In this document: in pieces, positions 4,334 to 31,745 of the stretch | Numbering within the stretch: position 1 is the stretch's first letter | Layout of the letters: every line of letters begins with the position of its first letter | Assembly: GCF_900115735.1 (NCBI RefSeq) | Contig: NZ_FOXO01000007.1 | Coordinates: 62,001-126,000, forward strand | DNA: 64,000 bases | Reading direction: 5' to 3' | From: Butyrivibrio proteoclasticus | GTDB lineage: Bacteria > Bacillota > Clostridia > Lachnospirales > Lachnospiraceae | Made by a program: the position numbers and the translations under genes | Notes under the pieces: generated by a model | Told to the model about the DNA's origin: nothing | Database searches by the model: none | What the model saw: the letters and a program-made list of their open reading frames with translations, nothing else

Positions 4334-5128
4334 ATGTCAACAATCAGAGGATATTCACAGAGTAACTATTATGATAGCGCTGATAACGACTATAGCGCAT
4401 ATAACCAAAATGCAAGTTCATTCCTGGCTGGTCTAAGTATCAATTCAGGAGCTGGCAATAATAATGGCATCATGGGTGGGATAAACCTCTCAGATTATGC
4501 CAGCATAAAGAATGGATCCTATGGAAAACTTGTTAAGGCTTACTATGCAAAACAGAAAGCTGATAGTGTTTCATCAGGCAGAGATTCGTCAGCAAAACTT
4601 ACATCTATGGGAAGTGCTGCAGGAACTCTTGCAAAGTCCGCAGGTGCTCTTATGAAGGACTCGCTTTGGGAAAAGAAACAGATAAAGACAAAAGATGAGA
4701 AGACAGGCGAGGAAACTACAAAAGAAGATTATGATTGGGATTCCATTACTAAAGCAGTAAAGTCATTTGCCTACAATTACAACAAGACAATTGAGAGTGC
4801 AGGAAGTTCAAACACAAAGGATGTCCTCAGAAATGCTGCATGGATGACCAAGACAACAAAATCTACAGAAAGACTTCTGGAGCGTGCAGGTATATCTGTA
4901 GGAGCGGATAATAAGCTTGAGCTGGATGAGGATGCCCTCAAAAAAGCAGATATCAGCACTTTGAAGAGTGTATTTACTGGCTATAATTCTTTTGCATCAA
5001 AGGTTTACGATAAGGCGCAGTCCATGACAAATGCTGCAGCAAGAGCGGGTGGAACATATACGAGCACGGGCAATTATTCAGATGTTCTGTCATCGATTCT
5101 ACCGTCGAATATCGATAAAAAAGAGTGA
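4334..5128 (+). CDS. FliD C-terminal-domain-like protein (flagellar cap relative)
   Basis: The 264-residue protein starts at ATG 4334 after AAGGAG. The N-terminus is Tyr/Ser/Asn-rich without a Sec signal. From about residue 135 it follows the FliD C-terminal order: a helix with VKSFAYNYNKTIE, a segment NAAWMTKTTKSTERLLERAGISV, the typical L-LDEDALKKAD element, and a final FNSFASKV-like helix (GYNSFASKVYDKAQSM). Canonical FliD is about 450-600 residues, so this is a shortened form without the variable central domains. FliD proteins cap the filament and leave the cell by the flagellar type III route; this one lies outside any visible flagellar operon, so a role in motility is uncertain. A paralogue is at 8995-9753. 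Confidence 0.7.
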   Translation: MSTIRGYSQSNYYDSADNDYSAYNQNASSFLAGLSINSGAGNNNGIMGGINLSDYASIKNGSYGKLVKAYYAKQKADSVSSGRDSSAKLTSMGSAAGTLAKSAGALMKDSLWEKKQIKTKDEKTGEETTKEDYDWDSITKAVKSFAYNYNKTIESAGSSNTKDVLRNAAWMTKTTKSTERLLERAGISVGADNKLELDEDALKKADISTLKSVFTGYNSFASKVYDKAQSMTNAAARAGGTYTSTGNYSDVLSSILPSNIDKKE

Positions 5129-5171
5129 CAATTTACGTCATAAAAACGTCTATTCATGACATCGATATAAT
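5127..5171 (+). promoter_or_regulatory. Paired direct repeat and -10 box, probable LytTR-type promoter A
   Basis: Two imperfect 15-bp repeats begin at 5127 (GACAATTTACGTCAT) and 5148 (GTCTATTCATGACAT), 21 bp start to start, matching at 10 of 15 positions. TATAAT lies at 5166-5171, so the second repeat covers the -35 region and no good -35 hexamer is visible. This is the layout of activator-dependent promoters bound by LytTR response regulators. It serves the gene starting at 5268. Pairs B (6320) and C (8804) have the same spacing. Confidence 0.55.
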
Positions 5172-5267
5172 AAGAAGAAAGTACCATCCGATATATAGAT
5201 AAAGACAATTATTTCATAATCAGAATGTATGGGAAATGGACTTCCCAAAGATAAGGAGGGCAACGGA

Positions 5268-6128
5268 ATGTCATTATCGGTAAGTTCAGATTATAGTCAG
5301 TTTTATAAGGGAACAGAGCAGTTAAAGAGCTATGGTTCAGGAAATGGTAAAAAAGAAACCATTGTGCGTTATGAGTTTAATACTACAGATGAGCATGGGA
5401 ATAAGGTTATGGACAAAATGTCCAAAGAAGAAAGCTTTCGTGTTATGAATGATATCACATCCCAATATGGTGATAATGTGCTGGTATCTTTTTCAGGAGA
5501 TGGCTTGGCTGCCCTGGAGACAAGTAAAGGTAAGCTCCCAATTCCAGAGCAACCTCATAGGGAAATACCGGAGGGAACATTTACAGCTCTTGAAGGACCA
5601 AAGGTGCTGTCAGAGGAAGAGTTATCTGAAATGCGAAAATCGGGCGGTACTAACATGGCAGATGTGATGCGCAAACTTGATCCGAATGCATATAAAGAAT
5701 TCATGAGCATAAACGAAGAAGCCATGGAAAAAGGTGGAACAGAGAGCATTATTGCAGGATTCAGGTTTATGTATAAGTGGATTACAAACAATGCTGAAAA
5801 GAATCCTAACTGGATGGATTCATATGACCCTGAGGGGAAGTATGAAGCTGATCATGAGATTGAGCTTTCAGAGAGGCTTAATTTCGTGAAAACTAAAAAT
5901 CATTCTTATGGAAAGTCTTTTTACTCCGTGGAAGACTCCGGTAAAGATCTCCTTGAGGCGTATGCGAATTTGATGAATACTATAGTTAAAGGGCATGAAA
6001 ATGGCACAAGAAAGTCTTTCGTAAAAGATAATGGTGAACTTAGGGAGATGACCCTTCATGAAGAACTTGATGCGCTGGATGCTGCGTTTTTGAAATTGTC
6101 TGAGCGATCTGCTGCCGGTGGATTATAA
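5268..6128 (+). CDS. Protein of unknown function, LytTR-site-controlled
   Basis: The preferred start is ATG 5268, 7 bases after AAGGAGGG; an in-frame ATG at 5229 has no ribosome binding site. The 286-residue product begins MSLSVSSDYSQFYKGTEQ, again polar-aromatic without a Sec signal, then has a beta-rich part with VRYEFNTTDEHGN (about 35-80) and a mixed helical C-terminus with FRFMYKWITNN and SERLNFVKTKNHSYGKSFYSVEDSG. No named family recognised. It sits downstream of repeat pair A and so probably belongs to the regulon of the two-component system that follows. Confidence 0.75.
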   Translation: MSLSVSSDYSQFYKGTEQLKSYGSGNGKKETIVRYEFNTTDEHGNKVMDKMSKEESFRVMNDITSQYGDNVLVSFSGDGLAALETSKGKLPIPEQPHREIPEGTFTALEGPKVLSEEELSEMRKSGGTNMADVMRKLDPNAYKEFMSINEEAMEKGGTESIIAGFRFMYKWITNNAEKNPNWMDSYDPEGKYEADHEIELSERLNFVKTKNHSYGKSFYSVEDSGKDLLEAYANLMNTIVKGHENGTRKSFVKDNGELREMTLHEELDALDAAFLKLSERSAAGGL

Positions 6129-6221
6129 AGATAAGCTCGTTTCAGCTGCAAAATTGGTTATGGAACAGTTTAAGTCTAACCGCGGGTAACTATGCTTGTT
6201 TTGATTCACAAGGAGGGGATC

Positions 6222-6305
6222 ATGAGAATACAGCAGAACATCCTCAATAAGCTGAGCCTCCTTTCAAGTGATGTTAAGGGTAGCACTGTAGACAGCCAGA
6301 TATAA
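6222..6305 (+). CDS. Small peptide, 27 aa
   Basis: A near-perfect AAGGAGGGG (6210-6218) precedes ATG 6222; the frame ends TAA at 6303-6305. The product MRIQQNILNKLSLLSSDVKG plus seven residues is a short amphipathic helix without Cys or Pro. The strength of the ribosome binding site is the main evidence that it is translated. It lies directly upstream of repeat pair B and the two-component genes, so a signalling-peptide role is conceivable, but nothing in it shows processing or a modification site. Confidence 0.5.
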   Translation: MRIQQNILNKLSLLSSDVKGSTVDSQI

Positions 6306-6319
6306 GAACATTCAGTAAT

Positions 6320-6366
6320 GTCTATTCATTACATTAAAGTGTCCATTCATGACATGAACATATAAA
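6320..6366 (+). promoter_or_regulatory. Paired direct repeat and -10 box, probable LytTR-type promoter B
   Basis: Repeats at 6320 (GTCTATTCATTACAT) and 6341 (GTCCATTCATGACAT) match at 13 of 15 positions and are 21 bp apart. TATAAA lies at 6361-6366. The site is about 110 bases upstream of the response regulator gene, which suggests autoregulation of the two-component operon. Confidence 0.58.
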
Positions 6367-6409
6367 TACGAAGCGTTGTGATGATAATATAAATATAGGG
6401 ATTAAGGGA

Positions 6410-6462
6410 AAATGCTTACATGGATGTCCGTGCTAAGCATTTTTCTGTTAATGGGCAAATGA
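6410..6462 (+). promoter_or_regulatory. Leader peptide overlapping a terminator-like hairpin
   Basis: AAATGCTTA (6410-6418) and TAAGCATTT (6434-6442) form a 9-bp stem followed by a T-rich run, between promoter B and the response regulator. The same bases encode a 16-residue hydrophobic peptide (ATG 6412 to TGA 6460-6462, MLTWMSVLSIFLLMGK) after AAGGGA. A leader ORF reaching across a terminator stem is the geometry of translation-coupled attenuation. Either element alone could be fortuitous. Confidence 0.45.
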
Positions 6463-6478
6463 AAATTGAGGGTAATGT

Positions 6479-7243
6479 ATGACAAGGTACAGTATAGCAA
6501 TTTGCGATGATGAAGAGGATGTAAGGAGTCTTTTTCATGATTGGGTAAGCAAGGCAAAAGATGATGTGGATGTTAAAGAGTACTCAGGCGGAGATGAACT
6601 CATAAATGATATAGATGCAGGCGCCGGGATAGATATTCTTTTTCTTGATATAGCTATGGGCAAAAATGACGGAATAGAAACAGCAAAAGAACTTGGAAGG
6701 CGCATAGAGGCAAGTGGCAAAAGTATGAGAGCATCAAGGCCACTTATAATTTTTGTTACAGGTATACCGGATAGGATGGGAGATGCCTTTGGCGTTAAGG
6801 CATTTGATTATCTGCTAAAGCCGGTTTCGCAGGCTGCATTTGAGAGTGAGCTTCACAGAGCAATAGAGGAACTGAACAGACTTGATGCCCAGCTCATATG
6901 CGAGACAAAATATCAAAATGAGAAAGACAGGTTTATATCCATACAATCAGGTAAAGGGACAATAAATATAAAGCTTCGGGATATTTTATATATTGAGAGC
7001 TCGGGACGAAAAGCAATTGTCCATTTGCCAGGAATTAAGCATGAAGTGTATCGGCAGATGAATGACTTTGAGGATGAACTGGGGAACAGTTTTTTTAGGG
7101 TTCACAGAGGCTATCTGGTTAATATGAGGCATATAAAAGGCTACTCCAGATCAGAGGTACAGGTTGATAATGGGGATGCACTTATAATGTCAAAATACAA
7201 ATACGCTGATTTTATAAGGGCTTACATGGAGTTCATATCCTGA
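6479..7243 (+). CDS. LytTR-family response regulator (AgrA/VirR type)
   Basis: The 254-residue protein has a receiver domain (about 1-135) with the acidic pair CDDEED near the N-terminus, a phosphoacceptor Asp in LFLDIAMGKNDG (about 59), Thr in FVTGIPD and the Lys in LLKPVS. A C-terminal LytTR DNA-binding domain follows (about 155-254) with ILYIESSGRKAIVHL and FRVHRGYLVNMRHI. Proteins of this type are phosphorylated by AgrC-like kinases and bind pairs of direct repeats near promoters. The start at ATG 6479 follows GAGGGTAATGT. The kinase gene follows 17 bases downstream. The three 21-bp-spaced repeat pairs in this cluster are its likely targets (inference). Confidence 0.92.
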   Translation: MTRYSIAICDDEEDVRSLFHDWVSKAKDDVDVKEYSGGDELINDIDAGAGIDILFLDIAMGKNDGIETAKELGRRIEASGKSMRASRPLIIFVTGIPDRMGDAFGVKAFDYLLKPVSQAAFESELHRAIEELNRLDAQLICETKYQNEKDRFISIQSGKGTINIKLRDILYIESSGRKAIVHLPGIKHEVYRQMNDFEDELGNSFFRVHRGYLVNMRHIKGYSRSEVQVDNGDALIMSKYKYADFIRAYMEFIS

Positions 7244-7260
7244 CGATTGTAGGAGGCAGT

Positions 7261-8685
7261 ATGACAGAGGAAAATATCAGAATTATGGAACAAATCTACG
7301 GAGTATCTATGATATTGATACGTGGCCTGTTCTTTGGAATGTTTGCAGAGCTTTTTATAAATAAAGAGACACTTAGCAGACCAAAGAATATTGTATTGTC
7401 AGTGATAATCACGATTGAAGGGATAGTGTTGTTTTCAATTCCATATTCTACAAAAGGTCTGTACAGTATAATAAGCCTTCTGACTATAGTTGCAGTGTTC
7501 TATTTTTATAATCAAAAGATATTACCGCATATCATCTTTGTCTTCTTTCTCTGGCAGAACGTATTCTACGTATGGCACTTGATAAACTTTGCTATTTTCA
7601 ACAGTATTTCAGATTATGTTACAGCAACTATAGATTATTCCAGGGAAGGCGCAGTGGAAAACCTATGGAACTGGATGTTTATACTGATGGCTTTGCAGGT
7701 TATTTTTTTTGCAATTTTCCTATTTCTCGAATATTTCGTAACCGGAAAAATATGTACGGTCAAGTATGAAATGTCATGGACTGAAGCTCTATATTTATCG
7801 ATATATTCCGCGGTGTCATATATTATCTGTTACATAATTGTAGAAGTTATGGTTGTACCGCTTGATAAAGAGGTTTTTGTGCTGCTTGATGAGAAACGGG
7901 ATCTTAGATTTACTATTCCAATTCTGGCTGTGCTTATTTTTATCGGAGAAATGTCTGCAATTGCTACATGGCAGCGCTACAGGAGACTTAAAGAAGAGGA
8001 GCTTAGGCTACAGGAGCAGCTTCAGGAGCAGGAGTTTATCAGGAAAAAGATTGAATATACTGAAAAATACCATGACCGTATAAGAACGCTTCGGCATGAT
8101 ATGGCCGGAAAACTCATGATTCTTAAGAGCTTTTTGGAAAAAGACAGGATAGGCGATGCAAAAGAATTCCTTGGAGACATGGACATTGAGTTAAGCTCAG
8201 AAGCTATGCAGTATGCGACAAATAATCCTGTTACGGATGCTGTCATAAATGAGGCTGCAGCCCAGGCATGTAGCATGAACTGCGATTTTAAGTCAGAATT
8301 TCTTTTCCCTGATGACAATGGAATCAGTGCTTTGGATATGGGGATTATTCTTAATAATCTTATTGATAACGCTTTGGATGGAGTACTAACCGTGGCGGAG
8401 GATGATAGGTTTATCAGACTTATTGGGGAACAAAAGGATAACTTTTACTTGATAAAAATAGAGAATTCGTTTGATGGAAAATTGAAGCGTGCTTCTGATA
8501 ACAGCATTATCAGTACAAAGAAAATGGATTCTGACGCAGATAAGCACGGGCTGGGGTTAAAGAGCGTCATGGGAATCGCAGATAAATATCTTGGAGCGGT
8601 GGATATCAATTCAGACAATAAGGTTTTTAAGGTTAAGGTAATGTTGCAGAAGAAAAACTGTTACTGTTCAGTTCCTGACCAGTAA
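7261..8685 (+). CDS. AgrC-like sensor histidine kinase with GHKL ATPase domain
   Basis: The 474-residue protein starts at ATG 7261 after GTAGGAGG. Residues 1-235 are hydrophobic with about six membrane segments and no large extracellular sensor, as in AgrC-type peptide receptors. A coiled coil (about 240-265) leads to the dimerisation helix with the probable phosphoacceptor in TLRHDMAGKL. The GHKL ATPase domain has an N box (ILNNLIDNALDG) and a G box (KHGLGLKSVM). It is the partner of the LytTR regulator upstream. The ligand is not evident: no agrB- or agrD-like gene is present, though two small peptides (27 and 16 residues) are encoded just upstream. Confidence 0.92.
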   Translation: MTEENIRIMEQIYGVSMILIRGLFFGMFAELFINKETLSRPKNIVLSVIITIEGIVLFSIPYSTKGLYSIISLLTIVAVFYFYNQKILPHIIFVFFLWQNVFYVWHLINFAIFNSISDYVTATIDYSREGAVENLWNWMFILMALQVIFFAIFLFLEYFVTGKICTVKYEMSWTEALYLSIYSAVSYIICYIIVEVMVVPLDKEVFVLLDEKRDLRFTIPILAVLIFIGEMSAIATWQRYRRLKEEELRLQEQLQEQEFIRKKIEYTEKYHDRIRTLRHDMAGKLMILKSFLEKDRIGDAKEFLGDMDIELSSEAMQYATNNPVTDAVINEAAAQACSMNCDFKSEFLFPDDNGISALDMGIILNNLIDNALDGVLTVAEDDRFIRLIGEQKDNFYLIKIENSFDGKLKRASDNSIISTKKMDSDADKHGLGLKSVMGIADKYLGAVDINSDNKVFKVKVMLQKKNCYCSVPDQ

Positions 8686-8689
8686 CTAA

Positions 8690-8781
8690 GCAATTTTGCA
8701 ATTAAATCGCTTCGCGATGGGCAAAATTGCCACTTGAATCACTTTCTTACGCAGCCAGCCAGCAGCGTAGTGCTGGCTGCT
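8690..8781 (+). repeat. Two intergenic palindromes after the kinase gene
   Basis: GCAATTTTGC (8690-8699) and GCAAAATTGC (8721-8730) form a perfect 10-bp stem enclosing ATCGC/GCGAT. CAGCCAGC (8752-8759) and GCTGGCTG (8772-8779) form a second GC-rich stem. Neither has a long U-tract; the first may act as a weak terminator. With the repeats at 8804 and 8899 they fill the 309-base gap before the next gene. Confidence 0.45.
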
Positions 8782-8803
8782 GACTGAATAGTAATGAAAA
8801 ACT

Positions 8804-8848
8804 GACTATTCATTACATAAAAAGGTCCGTTCGTGTCAAAGCTATTTA
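8804..8848 (+). promoter_or_regulatory. Paired direct repeat and -10-like box, probable LytTR-type promoter C
   Basis: Repeats at 8804 (GACTATTCATTACAT) and 8825 (GTCCGTTCGTGTCAA) are again 21 bp apart; the second is more degenerate. A TATTTA sequence at 8843-8848 is at the same offset (18) as the -10 in promoter A. It precedes the second FliD-like gene. Confidence 0.48.
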
Positions 8849-8898
8849 ACTGCCTCCGGTCATAGACGATACTTGATATGGAACAGAAACTACCTGCT

Positions 8899-8974
8899 GC
8901 ACTAAACTCGACAGTACCTCGTTAAGTGCACAGGTATGGTTCGCACTAGACTCGGGAAGAACCTCGTCAAGTGC
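8899..8974 (+). repeat. Two tandem copies of a REP-like palindrome
   Basis: Units at 8899-8929 and 8943-8974 both start GCACTA and end CTCGTNAAGTGC, each folding into an imperfect hairpin. Their reverse complement (CACTTGACGAGG..., CACTTAACGAGG...) matches the core of the 83-bp repeats at 34204-34383, so this is a dispersed palindromic repeat family. The second unit ends just before the ribosome binding site of the next gene. Confidence 0.6.
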
Positions 8975-8994
8975 TCTACTCAGGAGGTGTTTTT

Positions 8995-9753
8995 ATGAAT
9001 TTTGGGCAAAACTATTTTGATGTCTTGACTAGCAGGATAGGCGGAGCCTCCAGTATTTGGAACAGACACGGAACGTCTAAAGTTAATAATCGCAGCAGGA
9101 CTACAGGTACAAGGAGCACATCACGAACATCAGGCGCTATAAATAATAGCTATTTTGGATTAAGCGCCAATACCGTGAAAACTATGAATAACGCATATAA
9201 CAGCACATACAATAGTGCATATATGTCTGATCAGAAGGTTGCTGATGGAGCTGTAAAGGTAGAAAGCGCCGGTAAGAAACTTGCAAACAGTGAGATTTAT
9301 GAAGAAAAGAACACAGACCAGCTGCTTAAAACTGTAAAGAATTTTGTGGATGGTTACAATGATGTCAACAGTGGAGCAAAAAATGCTACAAGCACCTCAG
9401 TTAGAAACAGAGCCGGATGGATGAGAGAAGATGCACTTAATAATGTGTCAGACCTTAGAAAGATAGGCATAGGTTACAACTCTAAGACAGGAGAGTTATC
9501 TGTTGATGAAGATGTATTAAAAGGAGCAGACAAAGCTACTGTCAAAAAGATATTAGGAGAAGCCGGATCATTTGGACAAAGGCTTAGAAGCAATGCATCT
9601 TTAACATCACAAGCAGCCATTACATCAAGCAGGTATTCGAGGAATACAGGCATCTATGGATCTAATGGCACATACAATACTGGAAACCTTTTGGGTGGAT
9701 TTGGTGGATATGGTAATTCACTCCTGTCATCGATGTTTTCACGATGGTTTTAA
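8995..9753 (+). CDS. Second FliD C-terminal-domain-like protein
   Basis: The preferred start is ATG 8995 after CAGGAGGTG; an in-frame GTG at 8971 lies inside the repeat. The 252-residue product has a Ser/Thr/Asn-rich N-terminus without a Sec signal, then the FliD-like order: VKNFVDGYNDVNS, NRAGWMREDALNNVSDLRKIGIGYNSKTGEL, the LSVDEDVLKGAD element, and FGQRLRSNASLTSQAA. It is a paralogue of 4334-5128, sharing layout and the terminal Gly/Ser/Tyr-rich tail. The typical flagellar cap is much larger. It lies behind repeat pair C and probably responds to the LytTR system. Confidence 0.7.
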   Translation: MNFGQNYFDVLTSRIGGASSIWNRHGTSKVNNRSRTTGTRSTSRTSGAINNSYFGLSANTVKTMNNAYNSTYNSAYMSDQKVADGAVKVESAGKKLANSEIYEEKNTDQLLKTVKNFVDGYNDVNSGAKNATSTSVRNRAGWMREDALNNVSDLRKIGIGYNSKTGELSVDEDVLKGADKATVKKILGEAGSFGQRLRSNASLTSQAAITSSRYSRNTGIYGSNGTYNTGNLLGGFGGYGNSLLSSMFSRWF

Positions 9754-9788: not shown

Positions 9789-10772
9789 ATGAAGATAGCA
9801 AGTAGTGATGTATATACTAATTCAAATTACAGCTATCAAAAGGATTTGAACAGTGGCGGCGCAGGGACAGGCAGATTTTTTGCCGGAATAGTAGAAAAGC
9901 ATGTAGAAAAGGAAAAAACTGATTATAAGGCAACAGGTAATATAAAAACAGAAGATGGAAGAGAAATAAATGTTGATGTTGATGTAAGTATGGTTCGAAA
10001 AAAGGAGCATGAAACATTTATACCGATATCGTCACCACTGGATAATCTTTATGATCCATTGATAATCAATACAGGAAGTCAGACAGCTTCTTTAAGTGAT
10101 ACGAAATTTAAATTTGATCTTGATGCGGACGGCAAGCAGGATGAAATATCAATGACCAAGTCAGGGAGTGGATTTTTAGCTCTTGATAAGAACGGAGATG
10201 GAAAGGTAAATGACGGCACTGAACTGTTTGGAGTAAAGAGCGGTGATGGCTTTAAGGATCTTGCCAAGTACGATACAGATGGCAATGGCTGGATTGATGA
10301 AAACGATGAGGTCTATGATAAGCTCAAAGTCTGGAGTAAAACTGATGATGGAAAAGATAATCTTAGGACACTAAAGGAATCCGGTGTCGGGGCTATTTTC
10401 CTGGGATCAGAAAGCACGGAATTTACTCTTGATGGTGCGGATGGTGTTTTAGATGGGAAAGTGAGAAAGACAGGAATCTTTCTAAAGGAGGATGGGACTG
10501 CAGGAACCATTCAGCACGTTGATCTAGCCATCAAGGGACGTGAGTCAGAACTTATGAGTGCTGCAGAGAAGCTTGATAAAGTTTTGGAGAAGATGCGCAG
10601 CGAGAACTCTCAGCGGAGCAGGCGAAATAACAACAATGATAATGCAAGACGCCGGGCTCAGAGAGCAGCGAGACAAAAGAAGCAGCTTGAGGACTATCAG
10701 AAAAGAAAAGAACTGAATCAAGAACTGACGGAAAAGGCCATAGAGCATAGAAAAATGTTATATGGCACTTAA
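9789..10772 (+). CDS. EF-hand-like calcium repeat protein
   Basis: The 327-residue protein starts at ATG 9789 with the aromatic N-terminal style of the cluster (SNYSYQKD) and no signal peptide. Residues about 105-185 carry two Asp-rich calcium loops of the kind found in FrpC/RTX-associated domains: LDKNGDGKVNDGTELFG and YDTDGNGWIDENDEVYD followed by LKVWS. Such modules bind calcium outside the cell and are usually parts of much larger secreted proteins. The C-terminus (about 255-327) is a basic, Arg/Gln/Asn-rich coiled coil. No RTX nonapeptide array is present. The link to secretion is inferred from the calcium loops and context. Confidence 0.75.
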   Translation: MKIASSDVYTNSNYSYQKDLNSGGAGTGRFFAGIVEKHVEKEKTDYKATGNIKTEDGREINVDVDVSMVRKKEHETFIPISSPLDNLYDPLIINTGSQTASLSDTKFKFDLDADGKQDEISMTKSGSGFLALDKNGDGKVNDGTELFGVKSGDGFKDLAKYDTDGNGWIDENDEVYDKLKVWSKTDDGKDNLRTLKESGVGAIFLGSESTEFTLDGADGVLDGKVRKTGIFLKEDGTAGTIQHVDLAIKGRESELMSAAEKLDKVLEKMRSENSQRSRRNNNNDNARRRAQRAARQKKQLEDYQKRKELNQELTEKAIEHRKMLYGT

Positions 10773-10813
10773 GGAGCAAAGCACTTATTCCGATAATATA
10801 TAGAGAGGTTAGG

Positions 10814-10984: not shown

Positions 10985-12757
10985 ATGCCAAATACCATAA
11001 CAAACGGAAACTATTATTACACGCAGAGCGCATTTGTACAGAGTGCCCACTTTTATTCAAATCAGACAATCGGAAACAGCGATTTCCAGAGTGCTATTCT
11101 TGAAAAAAATGAGGATTCACCTGAGGTTGTGGATGCCCTGGCAAAAGAAGAGCCTGCAAAGAAAGGCTATACACGAGTTATAACGGCAAATGTGTGGAAC
11201 TCAGGAATGACATCAACGCAACTTGCTGACGGCAAAACCGCCTATTCTTATCAGGGGATGATGCAGAAGTTTGAGATAAGAATCGATGTGATGGGCGATA
11301 GCAGGAAATATACAGCAACCGGAACAGATGAAAACGGCAATGAGTTTTCAAAGGAGATAGATCCTTACGACGTGGATCCGACAGACTCAGATTTTACGGA
11401 ATTTGCCGCGCTGTGCGCATATATCCGTGATACAGAAGATATCGCTGATGAAGCTATGCAGGCAGTAGATGACGTGGCTCCTAACGATATCTTTGAGAAA
11501 AAGAATTTTCTGTCAGAGCTTAATGGCTCCATAAATAACTTCAAGATGATGGGAGTAAGCACACTTGGAGCAGAGCAGCTTCTTTCCCACATAAACAGGC
11601 TTATGGAAGTAATGATGACTTCCGGCGTGGGGACAGGCATTTCTCCTGAACCTGTAGAAAATGCAACAACATTTGCAGGTGCTAAGGTATGGGGAGATAC
11701 AGGCAGTTTTGGAACATTTTCCGGAATCCGCTTCCAGACCATAAGTTACTATGGCACCAGAGAAATCGGCGGAGCTGATTCGGCAACTGCAGAGAAGCCT
11801 GTCGAGATAAGTGATAAGGAAGATGATCAGAAAGAGATAGTTAGTCCCATAATTGGAATGAGTTCTATTCCTGTAGGAAACATGAGCTATGTGATGACTG
11901 CATCAGAAGTGTTTAAGCCTGGATCAGATGAGGCTATAGTAAGAGTCCATGTTGGTGGCAAGGATATCGATGTTAACATAAATGAAGTGGATCCAAAGAA
12001 TGCCTCAGCTGTTGAGATGTTTGCATATTGTCAGTATGCAGATGCCCATGATACAGGTACCGGATATACTTTTGGCAGCTACAGTGTGTTAAAAGGGGTC
12101 ACTGATCCACTTGGGAAATCAGAGTATACTTCACTTGATGAGGCTATCTCCAAAAAGAGCAATTGGAACGATGCAATTTCCGGATCTAAAGTATCCTTTA
12201 CAAAAGAACAGACAGGCGAAACATTTGATGCGTCAGTCCTTCTAAAAATGCTGGAAGAGACCGCAGGATTATTTGCTTTGCAGAGTGGTGATAAGGATCT
12301 CGGAGAGCTGACGGATGAAGAATGGGAAAAACTCCTTGCCGATACAGATAAAGCGATAGATGAGGCAAAGGAGACTGCTATAGAAAATAAGCAGCAGGAA
12401 GAAAAAGAAGCAGAACACGTAAAGCGGCTCATAGCTGAGAACTATGAAAACGGTAAGATACAGAAAGCTATGGACGGATATGAGTTTATGAAGATGCAGG
12501 GTGAGTTAATTGAGCGTAACGTTGAGAAGCTCAGGCAGAATCAGAAGACTACCCGTGAAAGACTTCTTGAACAGGATCCCAATGCTGCCAGCAAATGGTA
12601 TATGTATGATGGTAGTAGTAAACGCTATTCCTTTGATGAGTTCTGTAAGTTTATGGACGCTAAGGACGCCGAGATGCGTGCCAATGCTCCTGAATGGAGA
12701 AACCCATATCTTGAGATGGCTAACTATTATTTGAGTCAAAGGAAAAAAGAAGCTTAA
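10985..12757 (+). CDS. Large cluster protein of unknown function, 590 aa
   Basis: The preferred start is ATG 10985, preceded by AAAGGAAC at good spacing; an in-frame ATG at 10955 is poorly placed. The N-terminus (MPNTITNGNYYYTQSAFVQS) has the polar-aromatic pattern of the cluster and no Sec signal. Two similar modules appear: residues about 60-135 (VITANVWNSGM..., IDVMGDSRKYTATGTDENGNEF, IDPYDVDPTDSDFTEFAALCAYI) and about 275-375 (NMSYVMTASEVF..., VHVGGKDIDVNINEVDPKNASAVEMFAYCQYADA), so it is probably an internal duplication. The C-terminal 150 residues are charged coiled coil. No family recognised. A strong terminator follows, closing the cluster. Confidence 0.8.
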   Translation: MPNTITNGNYYYTQSAFVQSAHFYSNQTIGNSDFQSAILEKNEDSPEVVDALAKEEPAKKGYTRVITANVWNSGMTSTQLADGKTAYSYQGMMQKFEIRIDVMGDSRKYTATGTDENGNEFSKEIDPYDVDPTDSDFTEFAALCAYIRDTEDIADEAMQAVDDVAPNDIFEKKNFLSELNGSINNFKMMGVSTLGAEQLLSHINRLMEVMMTSGVGTGISPEPVENATTFAGAKVWGDTGSFGTFSGIRFQTISYYGTREIGGADSATAEKPVEISDKEDDQKEIVSPIIGMSSIPVGNMSYVMTASEVFKPGSDEAIVRVHVGGKDIDVNINEVDPKNASAVEMFAYCQYADAHDTGTGYTFGSYSVLKGVTDPLGKSEYTSLDEAISKKSNWNDAISGSKVSFTKEQTGETFDASVLLKMLEETAGLFALQSGDKDLGELTDEEWEKLLADTDKAIDEAKETAIENKQQEEKEAEHVKRLIAENYENGKIQKAMDGYEFMKMQGELIERNVEKLRQNQKTTRERLLEQDPNAASKWYMYDGSSKRYSFDEFCKFMDAKDAEMRANAPEWRNPYLEMANYYLSQRKKEA

Positions 12758-30977: not shown

Positions 30978-31745
30978 ATGAGCAGTATTTCATCTGTGAG
31001 TGGATACGGTAGTTATTCTCCATATTCCACTATAACAGCAGGCGGAACGTATCAAAGTGCTTCTCAGGGAGCTTCAGAGCTGGCAATTCAGGAGAAAACC
31101 AAGACACAGGTTAATGGTCTTGATGCCGGTAGCGAGAACCTTACATCTGCGAAATCTGTTTTGAACATTGAAGATGGAGCAATGGACGGAATAACTGATT
31201 ACCTTCAGTCCATCAGAGAACTTTCTGTTAAGGCAAAAAACGGAATATTATCAGACAGCGACAGACAGTCAATTCAGAATCAGATCGAGCAGTATAAGCA
31301 GGGAATAGAAGATATAGCAGGAAGTACAAATTACAACGAGAAGAATCTTCTTGATGGCTCAAATGGGGACTTTAAGGTTGCTACTGACAGCAATGGATCC
31401 GTGTCTACAGTTTCTACTTACAATTCTACATTGGAAGCCCTTGGAATAGCAGATTATGATGTTACAGGAGATTTTGACATAGGTGCAATTGACAGTGCTC
31501 TGGAAAAGGTTACAAGTTCAAGGGCAAACGTAGGGGCACAGTCAAATGGAGTTGATTATGCATTATCATATAACTCTCATGCTGCACTTGAACTCAATGG
31601 GTATCAGATGGATAAAGAAGAGGATAATTCCATAAAGGCTTATCAGAAACTCAAGACCCAGCAGGCGCTGGATTCTTACCAAATGATTCTCCAGAAAAAA
31701 CAAATGGAAGACAAAGAGCAACAAAGCTTGATGCTTTTCGCCTGA
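30978..31745 (+). CDS. Flagellin-like protein, isolated
   Basis: ATG 30978 after AAAGGAGG encodes 255 residues. After a Ser/Tyr/Gly-rich N-terminus (SSVSGYGSYSPYST), residues 30-125 follow the flagellin D1 pattern (GLDAGSENLTSAKSVLNIED, MDGITDYLQSIRELSVKAKN, RQSIQNQIEQYKQGIEDIAG, NEKNLLDGS). The C-terminus has IDSALEKVTSSRANVGAQSN as in flagellin C domains, but then an extra Gln/Lys-rich helix. No flagellar gene is adjacent. Flagellins are exported by the flagellar type III system; whether this forms filament is unknown. Its N-terminus resembles those of the 1-12.8 kb cluster. Confidence 0.78.
   Translation: MSSISSVSGYGSYSPYSTITAGGTYQSASQGASELAIQEKTKTQVNGLDAGSENLTSAKSVLNIEDGAMDGITDYLQSIRELSVKAKNGILSDSDRQSIQNQIEQYKQGIEDIAGSTNYNEKNLLDGSNGDFKVATDSNGSVSTVSTYNSTLEALGIADYDVTGDFDIGAIDSALEKVTSSRANVGAQSNGVDYALSYNSHAALELNGYQMDKEEDNSIKAYQKLKTQQALDSYQMILQKKQMEDKEQQSLMLFA

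What the first reader, a model, noticed from the sequence alone, without database searches (positions are those of the whole stretch)
5127..8848. Three direct-repeat pairs with exact 21-bp spacing define a LytTR regulon
Repeats starting at 5127/5148, 6320/6341 and 8804/8825 share GnCnATTCATnACAT-like cores, and each pair is 21 bp start to start, two helical turns. The second repeat sits 18-20 bp upstream of a -10 box in each case, replacing the -35. LytTR regulators such as AgrA and ComE bind pairs of direct repeats at about this spacing. A LytTR gene sits between the sites and has one in front of itself.
Basis: partly seen in the sequence, partly recalled or inferred. Interest (0 to 1): 0.7.

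Follow-up and report, generated by a model that had tools for sequence, protein, structure and literature searches.

The report
LytTR boxes upstream of flagellar-type promoters
In this rumen Butyrivibrio, paired DNA boxes that a sensor-controlled regulator probably binds sit before the regulator's own gene and before flagellum-type (sigma-28-like) promoters of unnamed, partly flagellum-like genes, which would link an unknown signal to the motility programme.

Summary
Three 12-mer direct-repeat pairs start at 5130/5151, 6323/6344 and 8807/8828, each 21 bp start to start; exact half-sites form no pair at other spacings from 13 to 40. A two-block model finds only these three strong sites in the 4.17-Mb genome. 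The pair precedes the LytTR gene in 14 of 14 orthologues and follows the kinase gene in 12 of 12 with sequence there. A small, local LytTR regulon is strongly supported.

One claim fails: the second repeat does not replace the -35. The best-conserved -10-like elements lie 26-29 nt after the 12-mer, so the boxes end 10-11 bp upstream of the -35, as reported for other LytTR sites (PMC6193735).

New: the target promoters (sites 1 and 3) look like sigma-28 promoters: CGATA with TTAAC (site 3) or a weak -35 (site 1) 16 nt upstream, the layout before the genus's flagellin genes. The regulator's own promoter has an extended -10. A LytTR activator on sigma-28-type promoters of partly FliD-like proteins was not found described in the searches made. 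Binding, activation and sigma use are inferred, not shown.

The parts
5128..5162 (+). Site 1: box pair ACAATTTAC(12)TCTATTCAT, 21 bp start to start; begins on the last base of the upstream ORF's stop codon
   Evidence: (E 1e-6)
5168..5194 (+). Sigma-28-like promoter of site 1: TAATA-N16-CGATAT (weak -35, good -10)
5229..6128 (+). Target ORF of site 1 (start more likely 5268, MSLSVSSDYSQFYKG...), no Pfam or NCBIfam family, no hydrophobic signal or TM segment
6321..6355 (+). Site 2: box pair TCTATTCAT(12)TCCATTCAT, upstream of the regulator's own gene; pair present in 14 of 14 orthologues
   Evidence: (E 3.9e-9)
6382..6390 (+). Extended -10 TGATAATAT of the regulator promoter; the TGn-hexamer pattern is kept in 14 of 14 orthologues
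6406..6447 (+). Leader hairpin with U-tract between that promoter and the LytTR start codon; conserved and covarying
6479..7243 (+). LytTR-type response regulator (receiver + LytTR DNA-binding domain), presumed binder of the pairs
7261..8685 (+). GHKL-type sensor kinase (HATPase_c_5), six hydrophobic peaks, AgrC-like topology
8805..8839 (+). Site 3: box pair ACTATTCAT(12)TCCGTTCGT, downstream of the kinase and upstream of the next operon
   Evidence: (E 7.3e-7)
8846..8872 (+). Sigma-28-like promoter of site 3: TTAAC-N16-CGATAC, same layout as flagellin promoters of the genus
8995..9753 (+). Target ORF of site 3 (MNFGQNYFDVLTSR...); FliD_C match just over the Pfam cut-off (scanned as 8971-9750), no hydrophobic signal segment
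9789..10772 (+). Second ORF downstream of site 3 (327 aa, DxDGDG-like stretches, EF-hand match below cut-off), conserved next to it
10769..10796 (+). Sigma-28-like promoter without a LytTR box (TTAAG-N17-CGATAA) before ORF 10985-12757
4334..5128 (+). FliD_C-like ORF upstream of site 1, distant paralogue (27% identity) of 8995-9753

Best explanation
A local two-component circuit in Butyrivibrio. The GHKL kinase (7261-8685) senses an unknown signal and phosphorylates the LytTR regulator (6479-7243). The regulator binds as a pair to the 9-12-9 direct repeats, whose proximal copy ends 10-11 bp upstream of the -35, and recruits RNA polymerase. At its own promoter (site 2) it works with an extended -10 of housekeeping type and so feeds back on itself. 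At sites 1 and 3 it sits upstream of sigma-28 (FliA/SigD)-type promoters, so the flanking operons of unnamed proteins without signal peptides, partly FliD-like, would fire only when both the motility sigma factor and the sensed signal are present. Shown by sequence: the sites, their spacing, specificity and conservation, and the two promoter classes. Inferred: binding, activation rather than repression, sigma-28 use, the AND logic, and possible export through the flagellar apparatus.
For: Genome-wide specificity: three strong sites in 4.17 Mb, all here; in a sample of 200 genomes of the family 2 of the 199 others have a hit at E <= 1e-4. Conservation: the pair lies 64-197 bp upstream of the LytTR match in 14 of 14 near-full matches at 59-100% identity and after the kinase gene in 12 of 12 with sequence there. 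Homologues at 36% and 33% identity (L057, L059) and the LytTR-type gene at L154 have diverged pairs in front of them. PMC6193735 (passages) reports 9-bp repeats mostly 12 bp apart and a strong bias to 10 bp upstream of the -35. Sigma-28 layout: among 23 clusters of sites, CGA stands at offset 26-28 after the box in 15 (shuffle mean 0.71, maximum 5 in 5000); CGATA at 25-28 in 9 representatives (mean 0.10, maximum 2 in 2000), or in 8 when half of a cluster's members must have it. Flagellin upstream regions (420 nt) carry TTAA[GCA] (<=1 mismatch)-N15-17-CGATA in 18 of 31 (shuffle mean 2.4, maximum 7), with spacing 16 in 17 of the 18. Box clusters match it with <=1 mismatch in 6 of 23 and <=2 in 9 of 23, also with one representative each (best-of-cluster shuffle means 0.30 and 0.84, maxima 3 and 5). 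FliA is encoded (266.7 bits, cut-off 189.6). In another genus (L199, not used for the model) a pair precedes TCCGATAT and lies beside a frame that I read as a LytTR domain.
Against: No binding or transcript data exist. The -35 of site 1 is poor (2 mismatches). GATACT/GATATA with TTTAAC could also be read as weak sigma-A hexamers with 16-17-bp spacing. 8 of 23 clusters lack CGA at that place: three autoregulatory clusters with an extended -10, one with TATAAT, two GH3-type hairpin clusters and two others. Strict CGATA is found in only 9 of 23. The regulator promoters at L057 and L154 have CGATA, so the split 'own promoter sigma-A, targets sigma-28' is not general. The offset was chosen after seeing the sites. 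13 of 31 flagellin regions lack the sigma-28 pattern. The second family hit outside the genus (L200) has no CGATA. Site 1 at this place was not seen in the relatives held. Conservation of box and regulator is linkage of neighbours and does not prove that one binds the other.
Confidence: 0.72

Rival explanations
1. Ordinary LytTR regulon: the same boxes and regulator, but all promoters are weak sigma-A promoters and the CGATA -10s are sigma-A hexamers such as GATAAT.
For: The LytTR spacing and position are as published; site 3 also reads TTTAAC-N17-GATACT; LytTR activators usually work with the housekeeping sigma (recalled; the promoters tabulated in PMC6193735, look of that type).
Against: CGA at one fixed place in 15 of 23 clusters and the same TTAA[GC]-N16-CGATA layout before the genus's flagellin genes are not a sigma-A signature.
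Confidence: 0.2
2. The pair is a repressor site of the regulator, or of another protein, and expression of the operons is sigma-28-driven and merely damped by it.
For: Nothing in the sequence proves activation; the kinase and regulator genes sit next to the sites.
Against: The proximal repeat ends 10-11 bp upstream of the -35, the activating position of known LytTR sites (passages); the -35 of site 1 is imperfect.
Confidence: 0.06
3. The second repeat replaces the -35 and the regulator works from within the core promoter.
For: TATAAT at 5166-5171, TATAAA at 6361-6366 and TATTTA at 8843-8848 follow the second repeat closely, and TATTTA is kept at site 3 in relatives.
Against: TATAAA is kept at site 2 in 7 of 14 orthologues while the extended -10 further down is kept in 14 of 14; the downstream CGATA has the -35 distance of flagellin promoters.
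Confidence: 0.04

Closest known systems
LytTR direct-repeat sites of AgrA/ComE/VirR type and of LytTR regulatory systems (PMC6193735, PMC4227749: passages seen; ComE and VirR recalled)
   Same: 9-bp repeats 12 bp apart, position about 10 bp upstream of the -35, a pair before the regulator's own gene, target operons next to the regulator genes.
   Different: Repeat sequence TCYATTCAT with a conserved ACAT/GACAT extension; target promoters sigma-28-like; no AgrB found in the genome; the regulator has a receiver and a kinase partner, unlike the LytTR regulator/membrane-protein pairs of PMC6193735.
Sigma-28 (SigD/FliA) promoters, TAAA-N15-GCCGATAT (recalled consensus)
   Same: CGATA -10 with TTAAG/C/A 16 nt upstream, as before many flagellin genes of the genus.
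   Different: Preceded by a LytTR box pair at fixed distance and, at some, a poorer -35; sigma-28 promoters are usually thought to need no activator (recalled).
Flagellar cap FliD and its C-terminal family
   Same: ORFs 4334-5128 and 8971-9753 pass the FliD_C cut-off narrowly (25.8 and 26.7 against 25.4 bits); Foldseek ranks E. coli FliD second (probability 1.00).
   Different: Short (about 260 aa), weak match (Foldseek E 0.1, no hit at E <= 0.001, model pLDDT 64.8). Whether a canonical fliD exists elsewhere was not searched.

Membership tests
LytTR direct-repeat operator | Two 9-bp direct repeats 12 bp apart | tested here: met
   three pairs, all 21 bp start to start
LytTR direct-repeat operator | Proximal repeat about 10 bp upstream of a -35 | tested here: met
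   sites 1 and 3: 10-11 bp; rule from PMC6193735 passages. Site 2 has no clear -35 but an extended -10 at the matching distance
LytTR direct-repeat operator | Repeat fits the general consensus [TA][AC][CA]GTTN[AG][TG] (recalled; the source paper is not held) | tested here: inconclusive
   of the six window copies only TCCGTTCGT of site 3 fits at all nine places; the others have A at place 4 and some differ elsewhere. ACCATTCAA in the table of PMC6193735 is similar
LytTR direct-repeat operator | Bound by a LytTR protein | not testable with these tools
   only linkage and conservation with the gene
Agr quorum-sensing system | AgrB peptide-processing membrane protease | tested here: not met
   no PF04647 match at E <= 0.001 in the genome; only 1 of 14 control genomes rang and none over the cut-off, so the control is weak
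Agr quorum-sensing system | AgrA equivalog score | tested here: not met
   31.5 bits against a cut-off of 400
Sigma-28 promoter | TTAA[G/C/A]-N16-CGATA as before flagellin genes of the genus | tested here: met
   site 3 exact; site 1 exact -10 and spacing but 2 mismatches in the -35; site 2 not met and not claimed
Sigma-28 promoter | Genome encodes FliA/SigD | tested here: met
   C46:188807, 266.7 bits over the cut-off of 189.6
Sigma-28 promoter | Transcription depends on sigma-28 | not testable with these tools
   needs a fliA mutant or in vitro transcription

The most novel reading that the evidence does not exclude
A family of LytTR two-component circuits in Butyrivibrio, and at least one related genus, acts as a co-activator of sigma-28 RNA polymerase. 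Gating promoters of a large, fast-changing set of proteins without signal peptides and with Tyr/Asn/Ser-rich N-termini (some FliD-like), it defines a signal-dependent sub-regulon of the flagellar programme whose products are exported through the flagellar secretion apparatus.
Probability: 0.35. Interest if true: 0.8.

Novelty: new variant of a known kind. Interest (0 to 1): 0.55.

Why it matters
LytTR boxes are well known, but in the passages I read they go with housekeeping-type promoters. Boxes at a fixed distance from sigma-28-type promoters would be a clear case of a two-component activator joined to the flagellar sigma factor, and would name candidate members of a signal-gated late flagellar regulon made of uncharacterised rumen proteins (DUF6033 among them in relatives). 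It also corrects where these promoters probably start, so the right 5' ends can be mapped.

Tried and rejected
Rejected: the '-35 replacement' reading (see rivals). Rejected: a wide genome regulon. Of 14 exact single 12-mers in the genome the 4 in the window have a 21-bp partner; the other 10 have none with fewer than 4 mismatches, and the model gives three strong hits. The list of 1-mismatch 12-mers was cut off by the tool and only the first of them became loci. Rejected: canonical agr with AgrB. Rejected: a conserved leader peptide in the hairpin before the LytTR gene; the frame is lost in L054/L072 while the stem is kept (read by eye). The AlphaFold model of 9789-10769 is useless (pLDDT 40.1) and was not searched. 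The model of 8995-9750 gives no Foldseek match at E <= 0.001. NCBIfam and Pfam scans of the target ORFs gave nothing usable beyond FliD_C and, in relatives, DUF6033 in two proteins and an HD domain in one. Papers: searches for LytTR + flagell + sigma + response regulator (50 papers, 15 listed), Butyrivibrio + LytTR (4), sigma28 + LytTR (1), DUF6033 (0), FliA/AgrA/direct repeats/flagellin/sigma D (1), LytTR + FliA (8), sigma D promoter with activator terms (861, 12 listed) showed no description of this combination in the titles and abstract starts listed. The library lacks most subscription journals, so this is weak evidence of absence. Passages of PMC6222199 (OmpR-type regulator) and PMC7438776 (C. 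difficile sigma factors) were seen and not used.

Rows dropped before counts: of 86 unique sites with score >= 13, 70 with score >= 21 and >= 45 nt downstream were clustered into 23. Of 34 flagellin loci 31 were kept as non-redundant. One search listed many more flagellin places than the loci read. The box-cluster shuffle used one member per cluster and so was too lenient; one search repeats it fairly.
Full report
Setting. The window lies in a 4.17-Mb genome whose nearest named relatives are Butyrivibrio. The LytTR response regulator 6479-7243 (LytTR 67.1 bits, Response_reg 48.7 bits) is followed by a GHKL kinase 7261-8685 (HATPase_c_5 80 bits; six hydrophobic peaks). The genome has 13 LytTR matches and no AgrB match (weak control).

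Observation. The three pairs exist and are the only exact pairs of their kind in the window: 9 exact half-sites on the + strand, forming 3 pairs at spacings of 13-40, all at 21 bp. That pattern was derived from the sites themselves, so the real tests are external. A sequence-only model of 21 pairs from several genomes, 3 of them the window's own, finds three hits at E <= 1e-6 in the whole genome, all in the window; the next has E 0.0125. This weak fourth hit (L102) lies about 2.7 kb from another LytTR gene, before a gene that I read as a GH3 beta-glucosidase (recalled likeness). In a 61-genome genus sample, own genome included, 34 have a hit at E <= 0.01; in a 200-genome family sample 2 of the 199 others at E <= 1e-4.

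Conservation with the regulator. All 14 near-full matches to the regulator at 59-100% identity have the pair upstream, with a gap of 64-197 bp and at most two mismatches to the half-site pattern. The pair behind the kinase gene is present in 12 of 12 where the contig reaches that far; two contigs end too early. In G004 it shows only with the matrix, not under the two-mismatch limit. More distant regulator genes (L057 and L059 at 36% and 33% identity; L154) have diverged pairs in front of them. This is what a cognate regulator and operator should show, but it is linkage of neighbours and does not prove binding.

Where the promoters are. Aligning sites from many genomes on the box shows two downstream patterns. 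In front of the regulator a TGn-hexamer extended -10 begins 25-26 nt after the 12-mer in 14 of 14 orthologues (TGATAATAT at 6382-6390 here), while the nearer TATAAA is kept in 7 of 14. In front of other genes CGA, often CGATA, stands 26-28 nt after it. Of 23 clusters (70 sites grouped by downstream sequence), 15 have CGA there, against a shuffle mean of 0.71 (maximum 5 in 5000). By my own sorting, the 15 clusters that are neither regulator promoters nor GH3-type hairpin sites have CGA in 13 and CGATA in 7 (in one of the 7 only in 4 of 10 members). The offset was chosen after looking, but the other offsets in the same scan give 0-2 clusters. The proximal repeat therefore ends 10-11 bp before the -35, as passages of PMC6193735 report for LytTR sites, and not far from the AgrA repeat centred at about -60 in PMC4227749 (passages).

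Sigma-28. Flagellin upstream regions (420 nt) of the genus carry TTAA[GCA] (<=1 mismatch)-N15-17-CGATA in 18 of 31 non-redundant regions, with spacing 16 in 17 of the 18 (shuffle mean 2.4, maximum 7). Box-linked promoters carry it with <=1 mismatch in 6 of 23 clusters and <=2 in 9 of 23 (best-of-cluster shuffle means 0.30 and 0.84, maxima 3 and 5). Site 3 is exact: TTAAC 8846-8850, N16, CGATAC 8867-8872. Site 1 is TAATA-N16-CGATAT, 5168-5194, with a weak -35. A box-free version, TTAAG-N17-CGATAA, stands at 10769-10796 before ORF 10985-12757 (that scan also lists chance-like hits elsewhere in the window). FliA is encoded at C46:188807. In another genus of the family a pair not used for the model precedes TCCGATAT next to a frame that I read as a LytTR domain and another Tyr/Asn-rich ORF (L199). 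The second outside hit (L200) has no CGATA there, which counts against generality.

Targets. The target ORFs show no signal peptide or membrane segment by hydropathy. Two pass the FliD_C cut-off narrowly, and a model of 8995-9750 (pLDDT 64.8) ranks E. coli FliD second but without significance (E 0.1). Box-linked operons of relatives include DUF6033 proteins. Gene content differs between relatives: a 347-aa gene upstream of the regulator in several of them is a 27-aa remnant here (6222-6305, read by eye). Flagellar export is a hypothesis suggested by these features, not a result.

Mechanism and confidence. Operators of the LytTR regulator: about 0.9. Sigma-28 use at sites 1 and 3: about 0.75. 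Signal-plus-motility AND gate: inference from the two. The finding is upgraded from an ordinary LytTR regulon to a new variant, LytTR boxes on sigma-28-type promoters. The paper searches named in Tried and rejected found no earlier description, with the stated limits of the library.

Noticed in passing
6406-6447: Strong terminator-like hairpin (stem with A/U tract, about -21 kcal/mol) in the leader of the LytTR mRNA; across 13 leaders 18 predicted pairs, 4 of them with compensatory changes. Possible attenuator between the autoregulated promoter and the gene. The leader of L052 is too short for it (by eye).
   Followed up: partly
6222-6305: 27-aa remnant (MRIQQN...VDSQI) whose ends match a 347-aa gene of relatives (L074, L075, L077, L082, L083), which looks like an internal deletion in this genome (by eye).
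   Followed up: partly
L102:1497-1560; also L134, L135, L137, L163, L164, L166, L169: A second box type, ACCGTTCATGACAAAAATCGTACCGTTTATGACAA, runs straight into AACGGCACGATTTTTT: the proximal repeat lies inside a terminator-like hairpin before GH3-like genes (recalled likeness) in several Butyrivibrio genomes. Operator and terminator may overlap.
   Followed up: no
10769-10796: Sigma-28-like promoter without a LytTR box overlapping the stop codon of ORF 9789-10772.
   Followed up: no
L078:16271-16325: Three tandem boxes instead of two before a DUF6033 ORF, with CGA but not CGATA at the -10 place.
   Followed up: no
31032-31364: Partial flagellin N-terminal match (positions 28-138 of 139) in the window, 260-aa frame.
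   Followed up: no
L078:14288-16269 and L080:14243-16227: A second, diverged LytTR-type regulator and kinase pair (about 27-28% and 23-25% identity) sits in the same cluster in some relatives.
   Followed up: no
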